A DNA stretch of 64,000 nt from Caulobacter sp. SLTY (GTDB taxonomy: Bacteria; Pseudomonadota; Alphaproteobacteria; Caulobacterales; Caulobacteraceae). Position 1 is the stretch's first letter. Each line of letters starts with the position of its first letter. Location: contig NZ_JAAALA010000014.1 in the NCBI RefSeq assembly GCF_009905535.1, forward strand, positions 1 through 64,000, given 5' to 3'. The position numbers and the translations under genes are program-made. The notes under the pieces were generated by a model, which saw nothing but the letters and a program-made list of their open reading frames with translations, was not told the origin of the DNA and made no database searches. Shown piece after piece: positions 27,002 to 31,210 of this stretch.

Positions 27002-28222
27002 TTGACCGACCGAAACGAAACCCTGCCGCCGCCGGCTCCGACTCCCTGGGGCCTTGTCATCCTGCTCGGCGCCATGACGGCCTTCGCGCCGATGTCGATC
27101 GACATGTACCTGCCGGCCCAGGTGGCCATCGCGGAGTCGCTGGGCGCCAGCCAGGCGCAGGTCGAGCTGACCCTGTCGACCTTCCTGGCCGGCATGGCCA
27201 TCGGCCAGTTCTTCTACGGCAGCGCCTCGGACCGGTTCGGTCGGCGCGGACCCATCCTGGTCGGCTGCGCGGTCTATGTGGTGGCCTCGGTAATCTGCGC
27301 CCTGGCCAGTGACGTGAACGCCTTGATCGGCGCTCGCTTCCTGCAGGCATTGGGCGGCTGCGCGGGCGGGGTGATCGCCCGGGCCATCGTGCGCGATAAC
27401 TTCGACCATCGCGACACCGCCCGGATCCTGTCCCTGCTGATGCTGGTGATGGGTCTGGCGCCCATCTTGGCGCCGGCGGCCGGCAGCCTGGTGCTGATGG
27501 TCGCCGATTGGCGGGCCATCTTCTGGTGCCTGGCGGCGTTTGGGGTGGCGGTGGCCCTGGCGGTGGCCTTCCGCCTGCGCGAGTCGCGCTCGGCCGAGAC
27601 AGCGGCTCAGGCGGCGTCGGAAAACCCGTTCCAGGCCTATGCGGCCCTGCTCGTCCAGCCCAGGCTGATCGGCTACCTGCTGGCCGGGGCGCTGAACGGG
27701 GCGGTGTTGTTCACCTACATCTCGGCCTCGCCGGGGCTGATCATGGGGATCTATGGATTCGAGCCGACGCCCTACGCGGTGATCTTCGGGCTCAACGCCT
27801 TCGGGGTGATCGGCGCCAACCAGGTCAACCGCATGCTGCTGCGTCGCCACAGCCCAGACGCGGTGCTGAAGACGGCCAGCCTGGTCGCCATCGGTTTCGG
27901 CGTGCTGCTGGCCCTGGCCGCGGTCAGCGGTCTCGGCGGCCCCTGGCTGCTGCTGCCCCTGCTGTTCGTCACCCTGGCCACCTATGCCCTGATGCAGGGC
28001 AACACCACCGCCGGCGCTCTCAGCTGCGACCCGCGCCGGGCCGGCTCGATCTCCGCGCTCAGCGGCGGCCTGTCGTTCGGCGCCGGGGCCCTGGCCAGCG
28101 CCGCGGCGGGGACCATCCACAACGGCACCCCGATCCCGATGGCGGTGGTCATGCTGCTCTGCCTGCTTGGATCCGGAGCCGCCCTCCGGTTCCTGGCGCT
28201 CAGGCCCGACGCAGCGCGCTGA
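27002..28222 (+). CDS. Bcr/CflA-family multidrug efflux transporter (MFS)
   Basis: This 406-residue drug:proton antiporter has 12 predicted membrane segments. Bcr/CflA marks are APMSIDMYLPAQVAIAESLG in helix 1 and GSASDRFGRRGPILVG (motif A) between helices 2 and 3. RFLQALGGCAGGVIARAIVRD falls in helices 4-5. The start appears to be TTG at 27002: no in-frame ATG or GTG lies upstream, and no clear Shine-Dalgarno is seen, so translation may be weak or leaderless. The 3' end overlaps the convergent DUF423 gene by 23 bp. Confidence 0.88.
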   Translation: MTDRNETLPPPAPTPWGLVILLGAMTAFAPMSIDMYLPAQVAIAESLGASQAQVELTLSTFLAGMAIGQFFYGSASDRFGRRGPILVGCAVYVVASVICALASDVNALIGARFLQALGGCAGGVIARAIVRDNFDHRDTARILSLLMLVMGLAPILAPAAGSLVLMVADWRAIFWCLAAFGVAVALAVAFRLRESRSAETAAQAASENPFQAYAALLVQPRLIGYLLAGALNGAVLFTYISASPGLIMGIYGFEPTPYAVIFGLNAFGVIGANQVNRMLLRRHSPDAVLKTASLVAIGFGVLLALAAVSGLGGPWLLLPLLFVTLATYALMQGNTTAGALSCDPRRAGSISALSGGLSFGAGALASAAAGTIHNGTPIPMAVVMLLCLLGSGAALRFLALRPDAAR

Positions 28223-28565
28223 TCGCCAGCAACAGCCAGCCGCTCATCATTGCCAGCCCGCCGACCGGTGTGACGGCGCCCAACCAGCGCGGTCCCCCAA
28301 ACGCCATGGTGATGAGCGAGCCGCTGAACAACAGAATGCCGACCAGGAATGCGGCCCGGGTCCCGGTGATCACTTTCAGACCGCCCCTCGCAAGCGCCGA
28401 AACCGCCAGAACCGCCAGGGCGTGAACACCAGCGTATTGCCCAGCGGTCTTCAGCCACTCGACCGCCTTGGGGTCACTGATCCCGTGGGCGGCGAAGGCG
28501 CCGAAGCCCACGGCCGCCAGTCCGGCCAGCGCCGCCAGGGCCACGTCAATGTTCGTGTTTTTCAT
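28200..28565 (-). CDS. DUF423 small membrane protein
   Basis: This 121-residue protein has four hydrophobic segments. It shows the family pattern of GFGAFAAHGISDPKAVEWLKTAG, broken here as GFGAFAAHG and EWLKTAGQYAGVHALAVL. The later block is LFSGSLITMAFGG followed by VTPVGGLAMMSGW. DUF423 (YgdD/TMEM256-like) proteins are inner-membrane proteins of unknown function. The gene stands alone. Confidence 0.9.
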   Translation of the reverse strand: MKNTNIDVALAALAGLAAVGFGAFAAHGISDPKAVEWLKTAGQYAGVHALAVLAVSALARGGLKVITGTRAAFLVGILLFSGSLITMAFGGPRWLGAVTPVGGLAMMSGWLLLAISALRRA

Positions 28566-28677: not shown

Positions 28678-29787
28678 ATGGCGCTGACCCGTGGCGACGA
28701 CTATCCGATTCACCAGACGCCGGAGCCGATCGCCTATGGCGGCACCGACCGGAACTTCTACGACCGCTACTTCTTCAACGGCTATCACCCGACCGAGGGC
28801 GAGGACTTCTTCGCCGCGGCCTTCGGGGTCTATCCGCACCTGAACGTCACCGACGGCGCATTCGTGGTGGTTCGCAATGGCGTCGAGACCGCCCTGCATG
28901 TCAGCGGCCAGCTTGGCGACCGGATGGACATGGCCTGCGGTCCGCTGCGGATCGTCGTGGTCGAGCCGCTCCATAAGCTGAAGATCCTCGTCGACTCCCC
29001 CGAGCATGGCCTGAAGGCCGAGGTCGAGTTCGAGAGCCGCTCGGCCCCCATCGAAGAGCCGCGCTTCATCCGCCGCAACGGCACCCGCGCCTTCATGGAC
29101 TACACCCGCCTGACCCAGAACGGCCGCTACACCGGCTGGATCGAGCTGGACGGCGAGCGGCGCAGCGTCGACGGCTTCGTCGGCACCCGCGACCGCAGCT
29201 GGGGCATCCGCCCGGTTGGCGCCCGCGACAGCCAGGACATCATCCCGGCGCCCAAGCCGCAGTTCTATTGGCTGTGGTCGCCCAGTAGCTTCGAAAACGG
29301 CTCGTTCTTCTTCCATTCCAATGAAGACGCTCTGGGCCGCCCGTGGAACACCCGCGCCGTCTGGGTCCCGGACCAGGCGGACGAAGAGGGCTTCGACCAC
29401 CTCAACGGCCAGGCCAAGGTGAACTGGAAGTCCGGCACCCGCCACGCTGTCGACGCGGTGGTGGAACTGACCGACGACTGGGGCAAGCCGGCCGGCAAGG
29501 TCGAGTTCAAGCCGCTCTATAACTTCCAGATGATGGGCTTGGGCTACACCCATCCCAAATGGAGCCACGGCCTGTTGCACGGCCCGCTGGCCGTCGAGCG
29601 CGAGGACATCGTCCTGGCCGAGGCCGACCCGAAGATGCCCTTCAACCTGCACGTCCAGGCGCTGAGCGAGGTGATCTACACCGACGCCGATGGCACGGTG
29701 CGCAAGGGCAGGGGGGTGCTCGAGCAGCTGGTCATGGGCCCGCACCAGCCTTCCGGCTTCAGCGACATCCTGGACATGGCCAAATGA
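28678..29787 (+). CDS. CrtC/AttH-like beta-barrel protein, first gene of kinase operon
   Basis: This 369-residue soluble protein has no signal peptide. Its beta-rich character, with TRDRSWGIRPVGARDSQD near residue 165 and repeated Trp/Asp/Gly-rich turns, resembles the hydroxyneurosporene synthase/AttH lipocalin-like fold. Proteins of this kind often stand next to APH-type phosphotransferases in Caulobacterales and Sphingomonadales genomes. The reaction is unknown; hydration or isomerisation of a hydrophobic acyl or isoprenoid substrate is a guess. GGGAGGA precedes the ATG. Its stop overlaps the kinase start by 4 bp (atga). Confidence 0.65.
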   Translation: MALTRGDDYPIHQTPEPIAYGGTDRNFYDRYFFNGYHPTEGEDFFAAAFGVYPHLNVTDGAFVVVRNGVETALHVSGQLGDRMDMACGPLRIVVVEPLHKLKILVDSPEHGLKAEVEFESRSAPIEEPRFIRRNGTRAFMDYTRLTQNGRYTGWIELDGERRSVDGFVGTRDRSWGIRPVGARDSQDIIPAPKPQFYWLWSPSSFENGSFFFHSNEDALGRPWNTRAVWVPDQADEEGFDHLNGQAKVNWKSGTRHAVDAVVELTDDWGKPAGKVEFKPLYNFQMMGLGYTHPKWSHGLLHGPLAVEREDIVLAEADPKMPFNLHVQALSEVIYTDADGTVRKGRGVLEQLVMGPHQPSGFSDILDMAK

Positions 29788-30797
29788 GCCTGCAGGACCA
29801 ACTGGAAGCCTACCTGACCCGCACCGGCGGTAAGCCGGCCAAGGTTCATGGCCTGTCCCGCATTCCCGGTGGGGCCAGCCGCGAGACCTACCGGTTCGAC
29901 CTTGAGGTTGATGGCGGCACGCGGGGCATGATCCTGCGCCGTGACCCGACCGGCAGCCTGATCGACACCGACCGGCGGGTCGAATTCCTGGCCTTCCGCT
30001 CCTTCTTCGACAAGGGCCTGCCGGTGCCCGAGGCGTTGGCGCTGGAAGAGGAGGGGGCCGAGCTCGAACGGCCCTTCTTCATCATGGGTCGCATCGACGG
30101 CGGCAAGGCCCAGAGCCCCTTCACCATGCCGCCCTATGGCGAGCATGCCGCCGAAATCGGTCGGCAGTTCTTCACTCACCTGGGGACGATCGCCGCCGCC
30201 GATCCCGCCACCCTGCCGATCAGCGAAGCGGCCGTGACCCCGGCTCTCGACGGCTGCTGGTCTAAGGAACTCGACTACTGGGAGGGGGTCGTCAACGAGG
30301 ACGAGGAACACCCCCAGATGATCATCCGGGCGGCTATCCGCCGCCTGCGCCGCAACCCGCCGCCGCCGGCCCAGAAGCTCAGCGTCGTCCATGGCGACTA
30401 CCGGACGGGCAACTTCCTGCACGATGGAGCGGGCAAGATCGTCGCCCTGCTCGACTGGGAGATGGCCCATATCGGCGATCCCCTGGAGGACCTCGGCTGG
30501 GCCATCGAGCCGCTGTGGTCCTACAAGGAGACCCATCGCGTCTCCGGCATGGTCCCTCGCGAGGAAGCCATCGCCCTGTGGGAAGCAGCCAGTGGGTTGA
30601 AGGTCGATCCCGCTGCCTTCGCCTGGTGGGAACTGTTCGCCTCGGTGAAGGGGGCCGCTATCTGGGTGTCCTCGGCCAAGGAATACCGGGCTGGCGGCTT
30701 CAAGGACCCGGTGCTGGGCCTGTCCGGCTGGTACACCGCCCGCCGCCAGGACGAGATCCTGGCCAATGTCCTCGCCAAGCTGGAGGGCCTGGCATGA
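29784..30797 (+). CDS. APH-fold phosphotransferase, LvaA/ACAD10-like (candidate hydroxyacyl-CoA kinase)
   Basis: This 337-residue kinase-like protein starts RIPGGASRETYRFDL (nucleotide loop). The catalytic loop is VVHGDYRTGNFLHD and the metal motif is ALLDWEMAHIGDPLEDLGW. This subgroup, related to the kinase domain of ACAD10/11 and to Pseudomonas LvaA, phosphorylates hydroxyacyl-CoA compounds rather than antibiotics. The substrate here is inferred only by family. It is flanked by 4-bp overlaps on both sides, and the next gene encodes a small protein placed where LvaB would be. Confidence 0.85.
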   Translation: MSLQDQLEAYLTRTGGKPAKVHGLSRIPGGASRETYRFDLEVDGGTRGMILRRDPTGSLIDTDRRVEFLAFRSFFDKGLPVPEALALEEEGAELERPFFIMGRIDGGKAQSPFTMPPYGEHAAEIGRQFFTHLGTIAAADPATLPISEAAVTPALDGCWSKELDYWEGVVNEDEEHPQMIIRAAIRRLRRNPPPPAQKLSVVHGDYRTGNFLHDGAGKIVALLDWEMAHIGDPLEDLGWAIEPLWSYKETHRVSGMVPREEAIALWEAASGLKVDPAAFAWWELFASVKGAAIWVSSAKEYRAGGFKDPVLGLSGWYTARRQDEILANVLAKLEGLA

Positions 30798-31210
30798 CCC
30801 CGACCGCGTCCGAACTGCTGCTCGGCAATTTCCTGTCGATGATGGAGCCGCCGCCGCCCGAGGCGTTGGGCGATTTCATGCAGGGCAAGGTGGCCGTCAC
30901 CGGCATGATCTCCCTGCTTTGCGCCCAGGAGGCCGAACGCGGCGCCGAAGCCCGGCTGTGGGAGAACGGGGCCATCCGCGACCTGCTCAGCCAGGGCGGC
31001 GCCGCCATTCCGGCAGAGGCGGACGTCGATCGCGACTTCTCCATCGCCGGCCTCGACCGCACCAACGCCACCCTGCGCCGGGCGCTCATCGACCTGCACA
31101 TCGCCGTCGAAAACGCTGGCGACACCGCCCTCGATCACGCCATCCTGCGCTTCTATGTGAAAAGCGCGGACATGCGGCGGCTCGACCTGCCGCCCCTGCC
31201 CGCCAACTGA
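30794..31210 (+). CDS. Small helical protein coupled to the kinase (LvaB/DUF6285-like candidate)
   Basis: This 138-residue acidic, mostly helical protein opens with TASELLLGNFLSMMEPPPP and GKVAVTGMISLLCAQEAERG. It carries no signal peptide and no motif I can assign with certainty. The layout, an N-terminal helix then a long helix with regularly spaced Ala/Glu, and its position overlapping the kinase stop by 4 bp resemble LvaB, the small activator of LvaA. This is an analogy by context; a sequence search is needed to confirm it. Confidence 0.6.
   Translation: MTPTASELLLGNFLSMMEPPPPEALGDFMQGKVAVTGMISLLCAQEAERGAEARLWENGAIRDLLSQGGAAIPAEADVDRDFSIAGLDRTNATLRRALIDLHIAVENAGDTALDHAILRFYVKSADMRRLDLPPLPAN

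What the first reader, a model, noticed from the sequence alone, without database searches (positions are those of the whole stretch)
28678..31210. Coupled operon of a CrtC/AttH-like protein, an LvaA-type kinase and a small LvaB-like protein
Three genes overlap by 4 bp each and read as one unit. The kinase has HGDYRTGNF and DWEMAHIGDP, the APH subgroup that includes Pseudomonas LvaA and human ACAD10/11, which phosphorylate hydroxyacyl-CoA. A 138-residue helical protein follows directly, as LvaB follows LvaA. The first gene is an AttH/CrtC-like barrel that is not part of the levulinate pathway, and no acyl-CoA dehydrogenase partner is present. The set could process an unknown hydroxy-lipid or isoprenoid-CoA.
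Basis: partly seen in the sequence, partly recalled or inferred. Interest (0 to 1): 0.68.

Follow-up and report, generated by a model that had tools for sequence, protein, structure and literature searches.

The report
ATP-driven dehydration operon with kinase helper
Three joined Caulobacter genes look like a small machine that uses ATP to turn an awkward alcohol group on a lipid into a double bond: a kinase with its own helper protein adds a phosphate and a partner enzyme pulls the phosphate off; this matters because the partner's family is named only by a tuberculosis gene of unknown role.

Summary
The three coupled genes are real. The first matches NCBIfam NF053593 (Rv3169 family, 373 bits); its only solved relative by sequence is 25-phosphosteroid lyase (36% identity).

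Of the 80 closest named lyase loci, 76 have a kinase gene within 3 kb, from two distant APH-type lineages that were exchanged several times. The 138-residue protein follows one lineage: present or fused in 37 of 39 loci with LvaA/ACAD11-like kinases (one of the other two ends at a contig edge), in 0 of 37 with ecdysteroid-kinase-like ones. In three Sphingomonas it is fused to the kinase. So it is probably a kinase partner, as LvaB is for LvaA; its kinship to DUF6285 is remote and under Pfam threshold.

Neighbours elsewhere (CYP125-like P450, CoA transferase, enoyl-CoA hydratase, CoA ligases) point to breakdown of isoprenoid or branched lipids, perhaps as CoA esters. Against: 4 of 80 named loci and 9 unnamed ones show the lyase with no kinase recognised nearby. 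Activities and substrate are inferred; nothing was assayed. New variant of a known kind, interest 0.57.

The parts
28678..29787 (+). Rv3169-family / 25-phosphosteroid-lyase-like protein, predicted phosphate-eliminating lyase (369 aa)
   Evidence: NF053593 373.4 bits, cut-off 150; only solved relatives by sequence 9fzn/9g2i/9g4c 25-PSL, E 8e-44; 107/299 identical, 25 of 27 comparable family-invariant residues kept
29191..29193 (+). codon of Asp172 of the lyase, invariant in 20 aligned family members; the aligned residue is Asn in the 25-PSL entry 9g4c, presumably an inactive variant
   Evidence: role inferred
29784..30797 (+). APH-fold small-molecule kinase, LvaA/ACAD11-like lineage (KA), 337 aa
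   Evidence: PF01636 109.4 bits; ACAD11 8v3v E 2.1e-10; in a clade of small-protein-linked kinases, SH-aLRT 99
30390..30413 (+). catalytic loop HGDYRTGN (His203-Asn210; predicted catalytic base Asp205)
   Evidence: HGDxRxGN in 33 of 33 kinases of this lineage tested
30794..31210 (+). 138-aa all-helical protein, probable kinase partner (SM family), LvaB-like in position and layout
   Evidence: in whole-genome searches found only at the lyase-kinase locus: 26 of 26 matches in 61 relatives, 10 of 10 in 289 class genomes; fused to the kinase in three Sphingomonas; predicted helices 5-16, 27-67, 84-108, 111-127, mean pLDDT 86

Best explanation
The operon encodes a three-part ATP-dependent dehydratase. 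The kinase (gene 2), held or tuned by its small helical partner (gene 3), transfers phosphate from ATP to a poorly leaving hydroxyl, most likely a tertiary or otherwise hindered alcohol on an isoprenoid or branched-chain lipid, possibly as its CoA ester. The Rv3169/25-PSL-type lyase (gene 1) then eliminates phosphate to leave an alkene that beta-oxidation or a further hydroxylation can use. Shown here: families, conserved residues, gene coupling, kinase exchange, partner fusion. Inferred: both activities, the helper role of gene 3, the substrate class and the catabolic direction.
For: Gene 1 is NF053593; its only solved homologue by sequence is 25-phosphosteroid lyase, 36% identical with Asp172 and 24 other of 27 comparable invariants kept. 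In S. denitrificans 25-HSK phosphorylates the tertiary C25-OH and a separate lyase activity removes phosphate (PMC8449060, passages and sections 4 and 9). A kinase gene lies near the lyase in 76 of the 80 named loci kept: 39 LvaA-like (KA, within 3 kb), 37 EcKL-like (KB, within 1.5 kb). On the lyase tree the KB label needs 4 changes, at least 3 of them forced by well-supported branches, so a kinase is kept although the lineage is exchanged. The small protein is separate in 34 of 39 KA loci, fused in 3, at a contig edge in 1, absent in 1; with KB 0 of 37. In 13 mostly Phenylobacterium loci P450-kinase-small share a strand while the lyase diverges, so the small protein goes with the kinase. Contexts: CYP125-like P450 directly upstream in 7 of 61 relatives; CoA transferase III, enoyl-CoA hydratase and thiolase-like genes in 4 Sphingomonas loci; CoA ligase-lyase-kinase-small in a Rhodococcus plasmid operon with beta-oxidation genes. 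M. tuberculosis carries Rv3168-Rv3169 as an operon (PMC5340868 passages).
Against: No activity was measured. Lyase with no kinase recognised in the stretch read: 4 of 80 named loci (L179, L230, L234, L236) and 9 unnamed loci (L040-L043, L046, L128-L130, L132), of which L043 has the contig length of L179 and L132 starts at a contig edge; likewise Variovorax, where no kinase is annotated nearby. The 80 loci are the best-scoring of at least 584, so they lean to the window's kin. 36% identity does not fix the substrate. KA kinases resemble ACAD10/11, which need a CoA ester and act on secondary 4-hydroxyls (PMC12440821 section 7), whereas 25-PSL belongs to a pathway on a free tertiary phosphosteroid. 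One KA locus (L219) lacks the small protein, and so do L135 (a distant kinase) and, by annotation, Pseudonocardia. The window itself has no P450 or CoA gene in the operon.
Confidence: 0.7

Rival explanations
1. Levulinate-like route: the kinase phosphorylates a secondary 4- (or 3-) hydroxyacyl-CoA as LvaA/ACAD11 do, and gene 1 replaces the LvaC/ACAD domain as the phosphate eliminator, yielding an enoyl-CoA.
For: ACAD11 is among the closest solved kinases; LvaB-type partner layout; CoA transferase, enoyl-CoA hydratase and thiolase-like genes follow in Sphingomonas; CoA ligase and acyl-CoA dehydrogenases accompany the module in Rhodococcus and Pseudonocardia.
Against: The DUF6285-linked kinases form their own clade apart from this one, and this genome already has such a pair. 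25-PSL belongs to a pathway whose phosphate is tertiary and carries no CoA (PMC8449060). P450 neighbours in Phenylobacterium and part of Caulobacter suggest that a hydroxyl is installed by oxygenation.
Confidence: 0.3
2. The module is biosynthetic: it installs a double bond in a membrane lipid (hopanoid, carotenoid or similar) rather than degrading one.
For: Wide retention in the genus (26 of 37 genomes); in the order's family f2 the lyase lies near Mla-type lipid-transport genes (named by eye).
Against: Patchy presence in the class (33 of 289 genomes, 25 over cut-off), beta-oxidation neighbours, a TetR repressor in M. tuberculosis and presence on large plasmids (26 records).
Confidence: 0.12
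3. Gene 3 is an unrelated helical protein (regulator or chaperone of the lyase), not a kinase subunit.
For: No family match in Pfam, NCBIfam or PDB for the window protein nor a significant PDB match for its profile; the first profile comparison with DUF6285 barely beat a reversed control (24.4 against 23.0).
Against: Tracks the kinase lineage (37 of 39 against 0 of 37), stays with the kinase when the lyase is divergent, is fused to the kinase in three Sphingomonas; larger profiles separate from controls.
Confidence: 0.12
4. The kinase is an antibiotic-inactivating phosphotransferase and the neighbours are incidental.
For: APH superfamily; weak NCBIfam hits to resistance families.
Against: The resistance-family hits are far under cut-off (27.1 bits or less against 205 to 725); conserved operon with the lyase across families.
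Confidence: 0.02

Closest known systems
25-hydroxysteroid kinase / 25-phosphosteroid lyase of Sterolibacterium denitrificans
   Same: Lyase homologous over about 305 residues with the key Asp; kinase-then-lyase logic for ATP-dependent dehydration.
   Different: In the 2021 paper no lyase candidate lay near the kinase gene (PMC8449060 section 9) and no small partner appears in the parts I read; the host is an anaerobic cholesterol degrader with Mo hydroxylases. Here an operon, a third protein, and P450 neighbours in relatives. That the solved 25-PSL comes from S. denitrificans is my assumption.
M. tuberculosis Rv3167c-Rv3168-Rv3169
   Same: TetR repressor next to a two-gene operon (PMC5340868); gene 1 is in the NCBIfam family named after Rv3169; 3ats, which I recall as the Rv3168 structure, is a kinase hit at E 1e-4.
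   Different: No third gene in the passages read; no function given for the pair there.
LvaA/LvaB of Pseudomonas putida
   Same: Kinase with a small protein that binds it (LvaB 12 kDa, pull-down, per PMC6692424 Discussion passage); similar predicted helix order for a DUF6285 protein.
   Different: Kinase clade separate from DUF6285-linked kinases (LvaA itself was not in the tree); no LvaC; small protein under the Pfam DUF6285 threshold.
ACAD10/ACAD11 kinase domains
   Same: Same APH-type kinase family; phosphorylate then eliminate.
   Different: Elimination there needs a flavin ACAD domain and acyl-CoA (PMC12440821 section 7); here a lyase of another family.

Membership tests
NF053593 Rv3169 family / 25-PSL-like lyases | Full-profile match over the curated cut-off | tested here: met
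   373.4 bits against 150, profile positions 1-351 of 351
NF053593 Rv3169 family / 25-PSL-like lyases | Invariant residues shared with solved 25-PSL, including Asp172 | tested here: met
   25 of 27 comparable invariants; Asp172 aligned residue is Asn in 9g4c
NF053593 Rv3169 family / 25-PSL-like lyases | Phosphate-eliminating activity | not testable with these tools
   needs an assay
25-HSK/25-PSL steroid tandem | Kinase orthologous to 25-HSK | tested here: inconclusive
   9fsg (379 aa, 'aminoglycoside phosphotransferase-like', possibly 25-HSK but not confirmed) matches at E 2.9e-4
LvaA/LvaB system | LvaA/ACAD10-11-type APH kinase with intact catalytic motifs | tested here: met
   similarity tested against ACAD11, not against LvaA itself
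LvaA/LvaB system | Small partner in Pfam DUF6285 (that LvaB belongs there is recalled) | tested here: not met
   gene 3 has no Pfam family at E<=1; 0 of 10 family members match DUF6285 at E<=5
LvaA/LvaB system | Remote kinship of the small protein to DUF6285 | tested here: inconclusive
   57 against 33 sequences: probability 59%, score 32.2; 50 shuffles reach at most 18.3, reversed profiles 14-15; window family alone 38%, score 29.1, and only 5.5% in global mode; first attempts 15% and score 24.4 against reversed 23.0
LvaA/LvaB system | Acyl-CoA dehydrogenase partner (LvaC) in the operon | tested here: not met
   none adjacent (by eye)
LvaA/LvaB system | Small protein physically binds the kinase | not testable with these tools
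   gene fusion in L168-L170 supports it
CrtC/AttH | Pfam or solved-structure match to CrtC/AttH by sequence | tested here: not met
   only DUF7065, 17.8 bits against 27; PDB profile search finds 25-PSL alone. Fold similarity not tested

The most novel reading that the evidence does not exclude
A widespread modular way of removing hindered hydroxyls in aerobic bacteria: a P450 installs the hydroxyl, a kinase (from either of two distant APH-type lineages, one needing an LvaB-like subunit) phosphorylates it, and an Rv3169-type lyase turns it into an alkene. Oxygenation plus ATP would together act as a desaturase on saturated isoprenoid or branched chains, and Rv3168-Rv3169 of M. tuberculosis would be a member.
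Probability: 0.3. Interest if true: 0.75.

Novelty: new variant of a known kind. Interest (0 to 1): 0.57.

Why it matters
It gives a testable reaction to a protein family that NCBIfam names only after Rv3169. It suggests that ATP-dependent dehydration, described in the papers I read for one anaerobic cholesterol degrader, also exists in aerobic alphaproteobacteria and, by gene neighbourhood, in Rhodococcus and mycobacteria. It also exposes a small kinase-partner family for which I found no Pfam match and, for the window protein, no NCBIfam match. A Caulobacter vibrioides copy of the lyase exists (control genomes), so genetics is within reach.

Tried and rejected
AttH/CrtC by sequence: no support. 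DUF6285 by Pfam for the small protein: none. First profile comparisons with DUF6285 were weak (probability 15%; score 24.4 against reversed control 23.0); only the larger sets separate from controls, and over the N-terminal 67 or so columns. Foldseek of both small-protein models against PDB: nothing at E<=0.001. No small-protein match in plasmids by tblastn with the window sequence at E<=0.01, although a Rhodococcus plasmid carries a distant one in the same slot. Kinase as resistance gene: rejected. P450 co-occurrence as proof: rejected as confounded by descent (25 of 26 lyase-positive and 5 of 11 lyase-negative genus genomes have the P450 orthologue at E<=1e-150; three of the 11 are 70-83% complete). 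The P450 beside the Phenylobacterium kinases is a different, more distant P450 (175-206 bits against 1039 for the Caulobacter type); its subfamily was not tested. The papers I could read do not include a primary report of the 25-PSL structures or of LvaAB (Rand 2017 is not held).

Rows dropped before counts: DUF6285 loci L156-L159 (kinase fusions or split matches) were left out of the profile sets; the duplicate window row was removed; L004 gave no kinase hit and L007 was left out of the kinase tree. Kinase tree: 81 rows from a chosen subset of loci, quick method. Lyase tree: 75 rows, from 56 of 80 named loci, 18 unnamed and the window, quick method. The named and unnamed sets overlap: contig lengths show that L167, L178, L179 and L181 are the contigs of L055, L123, L043 and L047, so the two sets are not independent. 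The directon listing covers 73 of 80 loci, apparently because the gene caller missed the lyase call in 7. Gene calls outside annotated plasmids come from a home-made caller, which misplaced some starts. One of my notes says 26 of 28 invariants; the recount is 25 of 27.
Full report
OBSERVATION. The window holds three + strand genes at 28678-29787, 29784-30797 and 30794-31210 with 4-bp overlaps. The upstream neighbour (28200-28565) is on the other strand. Downstream genes (31221 on: a secreted-type protein, a small protein, an MFS transporter, all named by eye) run the same way but share no evident theme. The operon proper is the triad.

GENE 1. NCBIfam NF053593 'Rv3169 family' matches over its whole profile at 373.4 bits, cut-off 150. 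Pfam has only a sub-threshold DUF7065 match. Among PDB sequences the only relatives, by single sequence at E<=1 or by a 20-row profile at E<=10, are entries 9fzn, 9g2i and 9g4c, named 25-phosphosteroid lyase. Identity is 107 of 299 aligned residues. Of 27 family-invariant residues that can be compared, 25 are kept (Pro97 and Arg255 differ). One of them, Asp172 (codon 29191-29193), is Asn in entry 9g4c, as one would expect of a catalytic-residue variant; that reading is mine.

GENE 2. It is an APH-fold kinase. Its solved relatives include 9o56, ACAD11 (8v3v, 8v3u), 3dxp, 3ats (Rv3168, name recalled) and 9fsg. The catalytic loop HGDYRTGN (codons 30390-30413) follows the pattern HGDxRxGN, kept in 33 of 33 kinases of this lineage tested.

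GENE 3. No family match in Pfam, NCBIfam or PDB (scattered single-member Pfam hits at E 0.017 or worse). Predicted structure: four helices, the second about 40 residues long (5-16, 27-67, 84-108, 111-127; mean pLDDT 86). The DUF6285 protein of the same genome is predicted with helices 7-25, 28-66, 72-84, 93-110 and a short one at 116-121 (pLDDT 91): a similar order and a long second helix at the same place. I could not superpose the models.

HOW WIDELY THE SET HOLDS TOGETHER. In 61 relatives the lyase family is in 34. The small-protein profile matches 26 of the same 61, and each of the 26 matches lies about 1.1 kb beyond the lyase on its strand. The one lyase-positive genome of the genus without it (G017) has its locus at a contig edge. 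In 289 genomes of the class the lyase is in 33, 25 of them over cut-off. The first small-protein profile hits 10 genomes, and in all 9 besides the window's own it lies 1.05-1.13 kb beyond the lyase with a kinase between. Iterated profiles added G279, G159 and, in the order, G057. Of the 25 over-cut-off lyase loci of the class outside the window that I read, 20 have a kinase beside the lyase and 5 (L041, L128, L129, L130, L132) none that the profiles recognise.

NAMED GENOMES. Tally: LvaA-like kinase (KA) within 3 kb in 39, ecdysteroid-kinase-like kinase (KB) within 1.5 kb in 37, none in 4. Both lineages match Pfam APH; three KB proteins scanned also match EcKL, so they are distant kin, not unrelated folds. 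The small protein is separate in 34 of 39 KA loci. In L168, L169 and L170 it is the C-terminal part of a 469-residue kinase, aligning with the separate protein of Sphingomonas corticis (L168 and L170 tested: 47-55% identity over 106-128 residues; L169 by alignment). L165 ends at the contig edge and L219 lacks it. With KB it is found in 0 of 37. Where separate, it overlaps the kinase gene by exactly 4 bp in 31 of 34. In 13 mostly Phenylobacterium loci the order is P450-kinase-small on one strand with the lyase divergent, so the small protein goes with the kinase. DUF6285 shows the same habit: it overlaps its own kinase by 4 bp here and shares one open frame with a kinase in G540 and G205.

KINASE EXCHANGE. 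The kinase tree puts small-protein-linked kinases (SH-aLRT 99; L219 without the small protein lies inside), DUF6285-linked kinases (99) and EcKL kinases (100) on separate branches. On the lyase tree the KB label needs 4 changes, at least 3 forced by well-supported branches (quick tree without bootstrap). A lyase that keeps some kinase beside it while the lineage changes is what one expects if it consumes the kinase's phospho-product.

SMALL PROTEIN AND DUF6285. Small proteins in the same slot in more distant loci (L138-L141) match the window family at 97% probability over 139 columns and DUF6285 at 84% over 25 N-terminal columns. The pooled family (57 sequences) against DUF6285 (33) gives probability 59%, score 32.2, while 50 column shuffles reach at most 18.3 and reversed profiles 14-15; the window family alone gives 38%, score 29.1. 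Earlier, smaller sets were weak. A Rhodococcus plasmid's 128-residue protein in the same slot resembles the distant set (87%) and, weakly, DUF6285 (45%). I take remote common descent as likely, not proven. LvaB is a 12-kDa protein that pulled down with LvaA (PMC6692424 Discussion passage citing Rand 2017); that LvaB is a DUF6285 protein is recalled.

WHAT IT DOES. In S. denitrificans 25-HSK phosphorylates the tertiary C25 alcohol of sterols, and phosphate is then eliminated to an alkene; the 2021 paper had not found the lyase and noted no candidate near the kinase gene (PMC8449060, passages and sections 4 and 9; also passages of PMC7411048 and PMC11061730). The PDB names now label a lyase, and gene 1 is its homologue. 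Mechanism proposed: ATP + R3C-OH gives R3C-O-phosphate (genes 2+3), then alkene + phosphate (gene 1). Substrate evidence is contextual. A CYP125-like P450 (best PDB match an ancestral CYP125) sits directly upstream in 7 of 61 relatives, and its orthologue is unlinked in this genome (74% identity). In four Sphingomonas loci the same operon continues with CoA transferase III, enoyl-CoA hydratase and a thiolase-like protein (Pfam for L168; the other three by similarity). CoA ligase, CoA transferase or beta-oxidation genes also adjoin the lyase in L128/L129 (ligase named by eye), L186 and L139, Rhodococcus sp. ZPP, Pseudonocardia and Variovorax (no kinase annotated there). These examples were noticed, not counted against a background, and most of the 80 named loci have no such gene in the operon. 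They favour catabolism of a branched or isoprenoid chain. Whether the kinase sees the free alcohol or its CoA ester is open: ACAD10/11 need the CoA (PMC12440821 section 7).

KNOWN OR NEW. M. tuberculosis has Rv3168-Rv3169 as an operon under TetR Rv3167c (PMC5340868 passages). In the held open-access library 'phosphosteroid lyase' occurs in two papers, 'DUF6285' in none, and searches listed no paper that joins kinase-lyase dehydration to Caulobacter or to an LvaB-like subunit; 20 papers hold Rv3168 or Rv3169 (listing only, except PMC5340868). Subscription papers, among them any primary report of the 25-PSL structures, were not searchable, so part of this may already be in print. Hence: new variant of a known kind.

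Noticed in passing
L079 8892-10234 (G000:C5), own genome outside the window: A separate 325-aa LvaA-like kinase and 122-aa DUF6285 pair with 4-bp overlap, near thiolase-like and HMG-CoA-synthase-like genes (by eye): the true kinase-DUF6285 type in this genome.
   Followed up: partly
41 genomes shared: DUF6285 and the lyase family nearly always occur together: 19 genomes have both, 1 (G046) DUF6285 only, 0 the lyase only, 21 neither; descent may explain it, or the two systems may serve one catabolic regime.
   Followed up: no
L253 8130-9458 (G000:C2:77629-78951): CYP125-like P450 orthologue, unlinked here but directly upstream of the lyase in seven relatives.
   Followed up: partly
L156 and L157 (G540, G205): DUF6285 in one open frame with its kinase (447 and 453 aa), parallel to the Sphingomonas fusion of the window-type small protein.
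   Followed up: partly
L240, L241, L242, L244 (actinobacterial plasmids): Lyase-kinase pairs in stretches that also hold PEP-utilizing / pyruvate-phosphate-dikinase-like enzymes; the reason for that repeated company is unexplained.
   Followed up: no
L040, L041, L042, L043, L046: Lyase with no kinase recognised in the stretch, near thioesterase-like and Mla-type lipid-transport genes (named by eye); where its kinase lies is unknown.
   Followed up: partly
L057, L058, L059: Second, distant set of lyase-like proteins (34-42 bits) in some relatives; no window-type kinase was labelled beside them.
   Followed up: no
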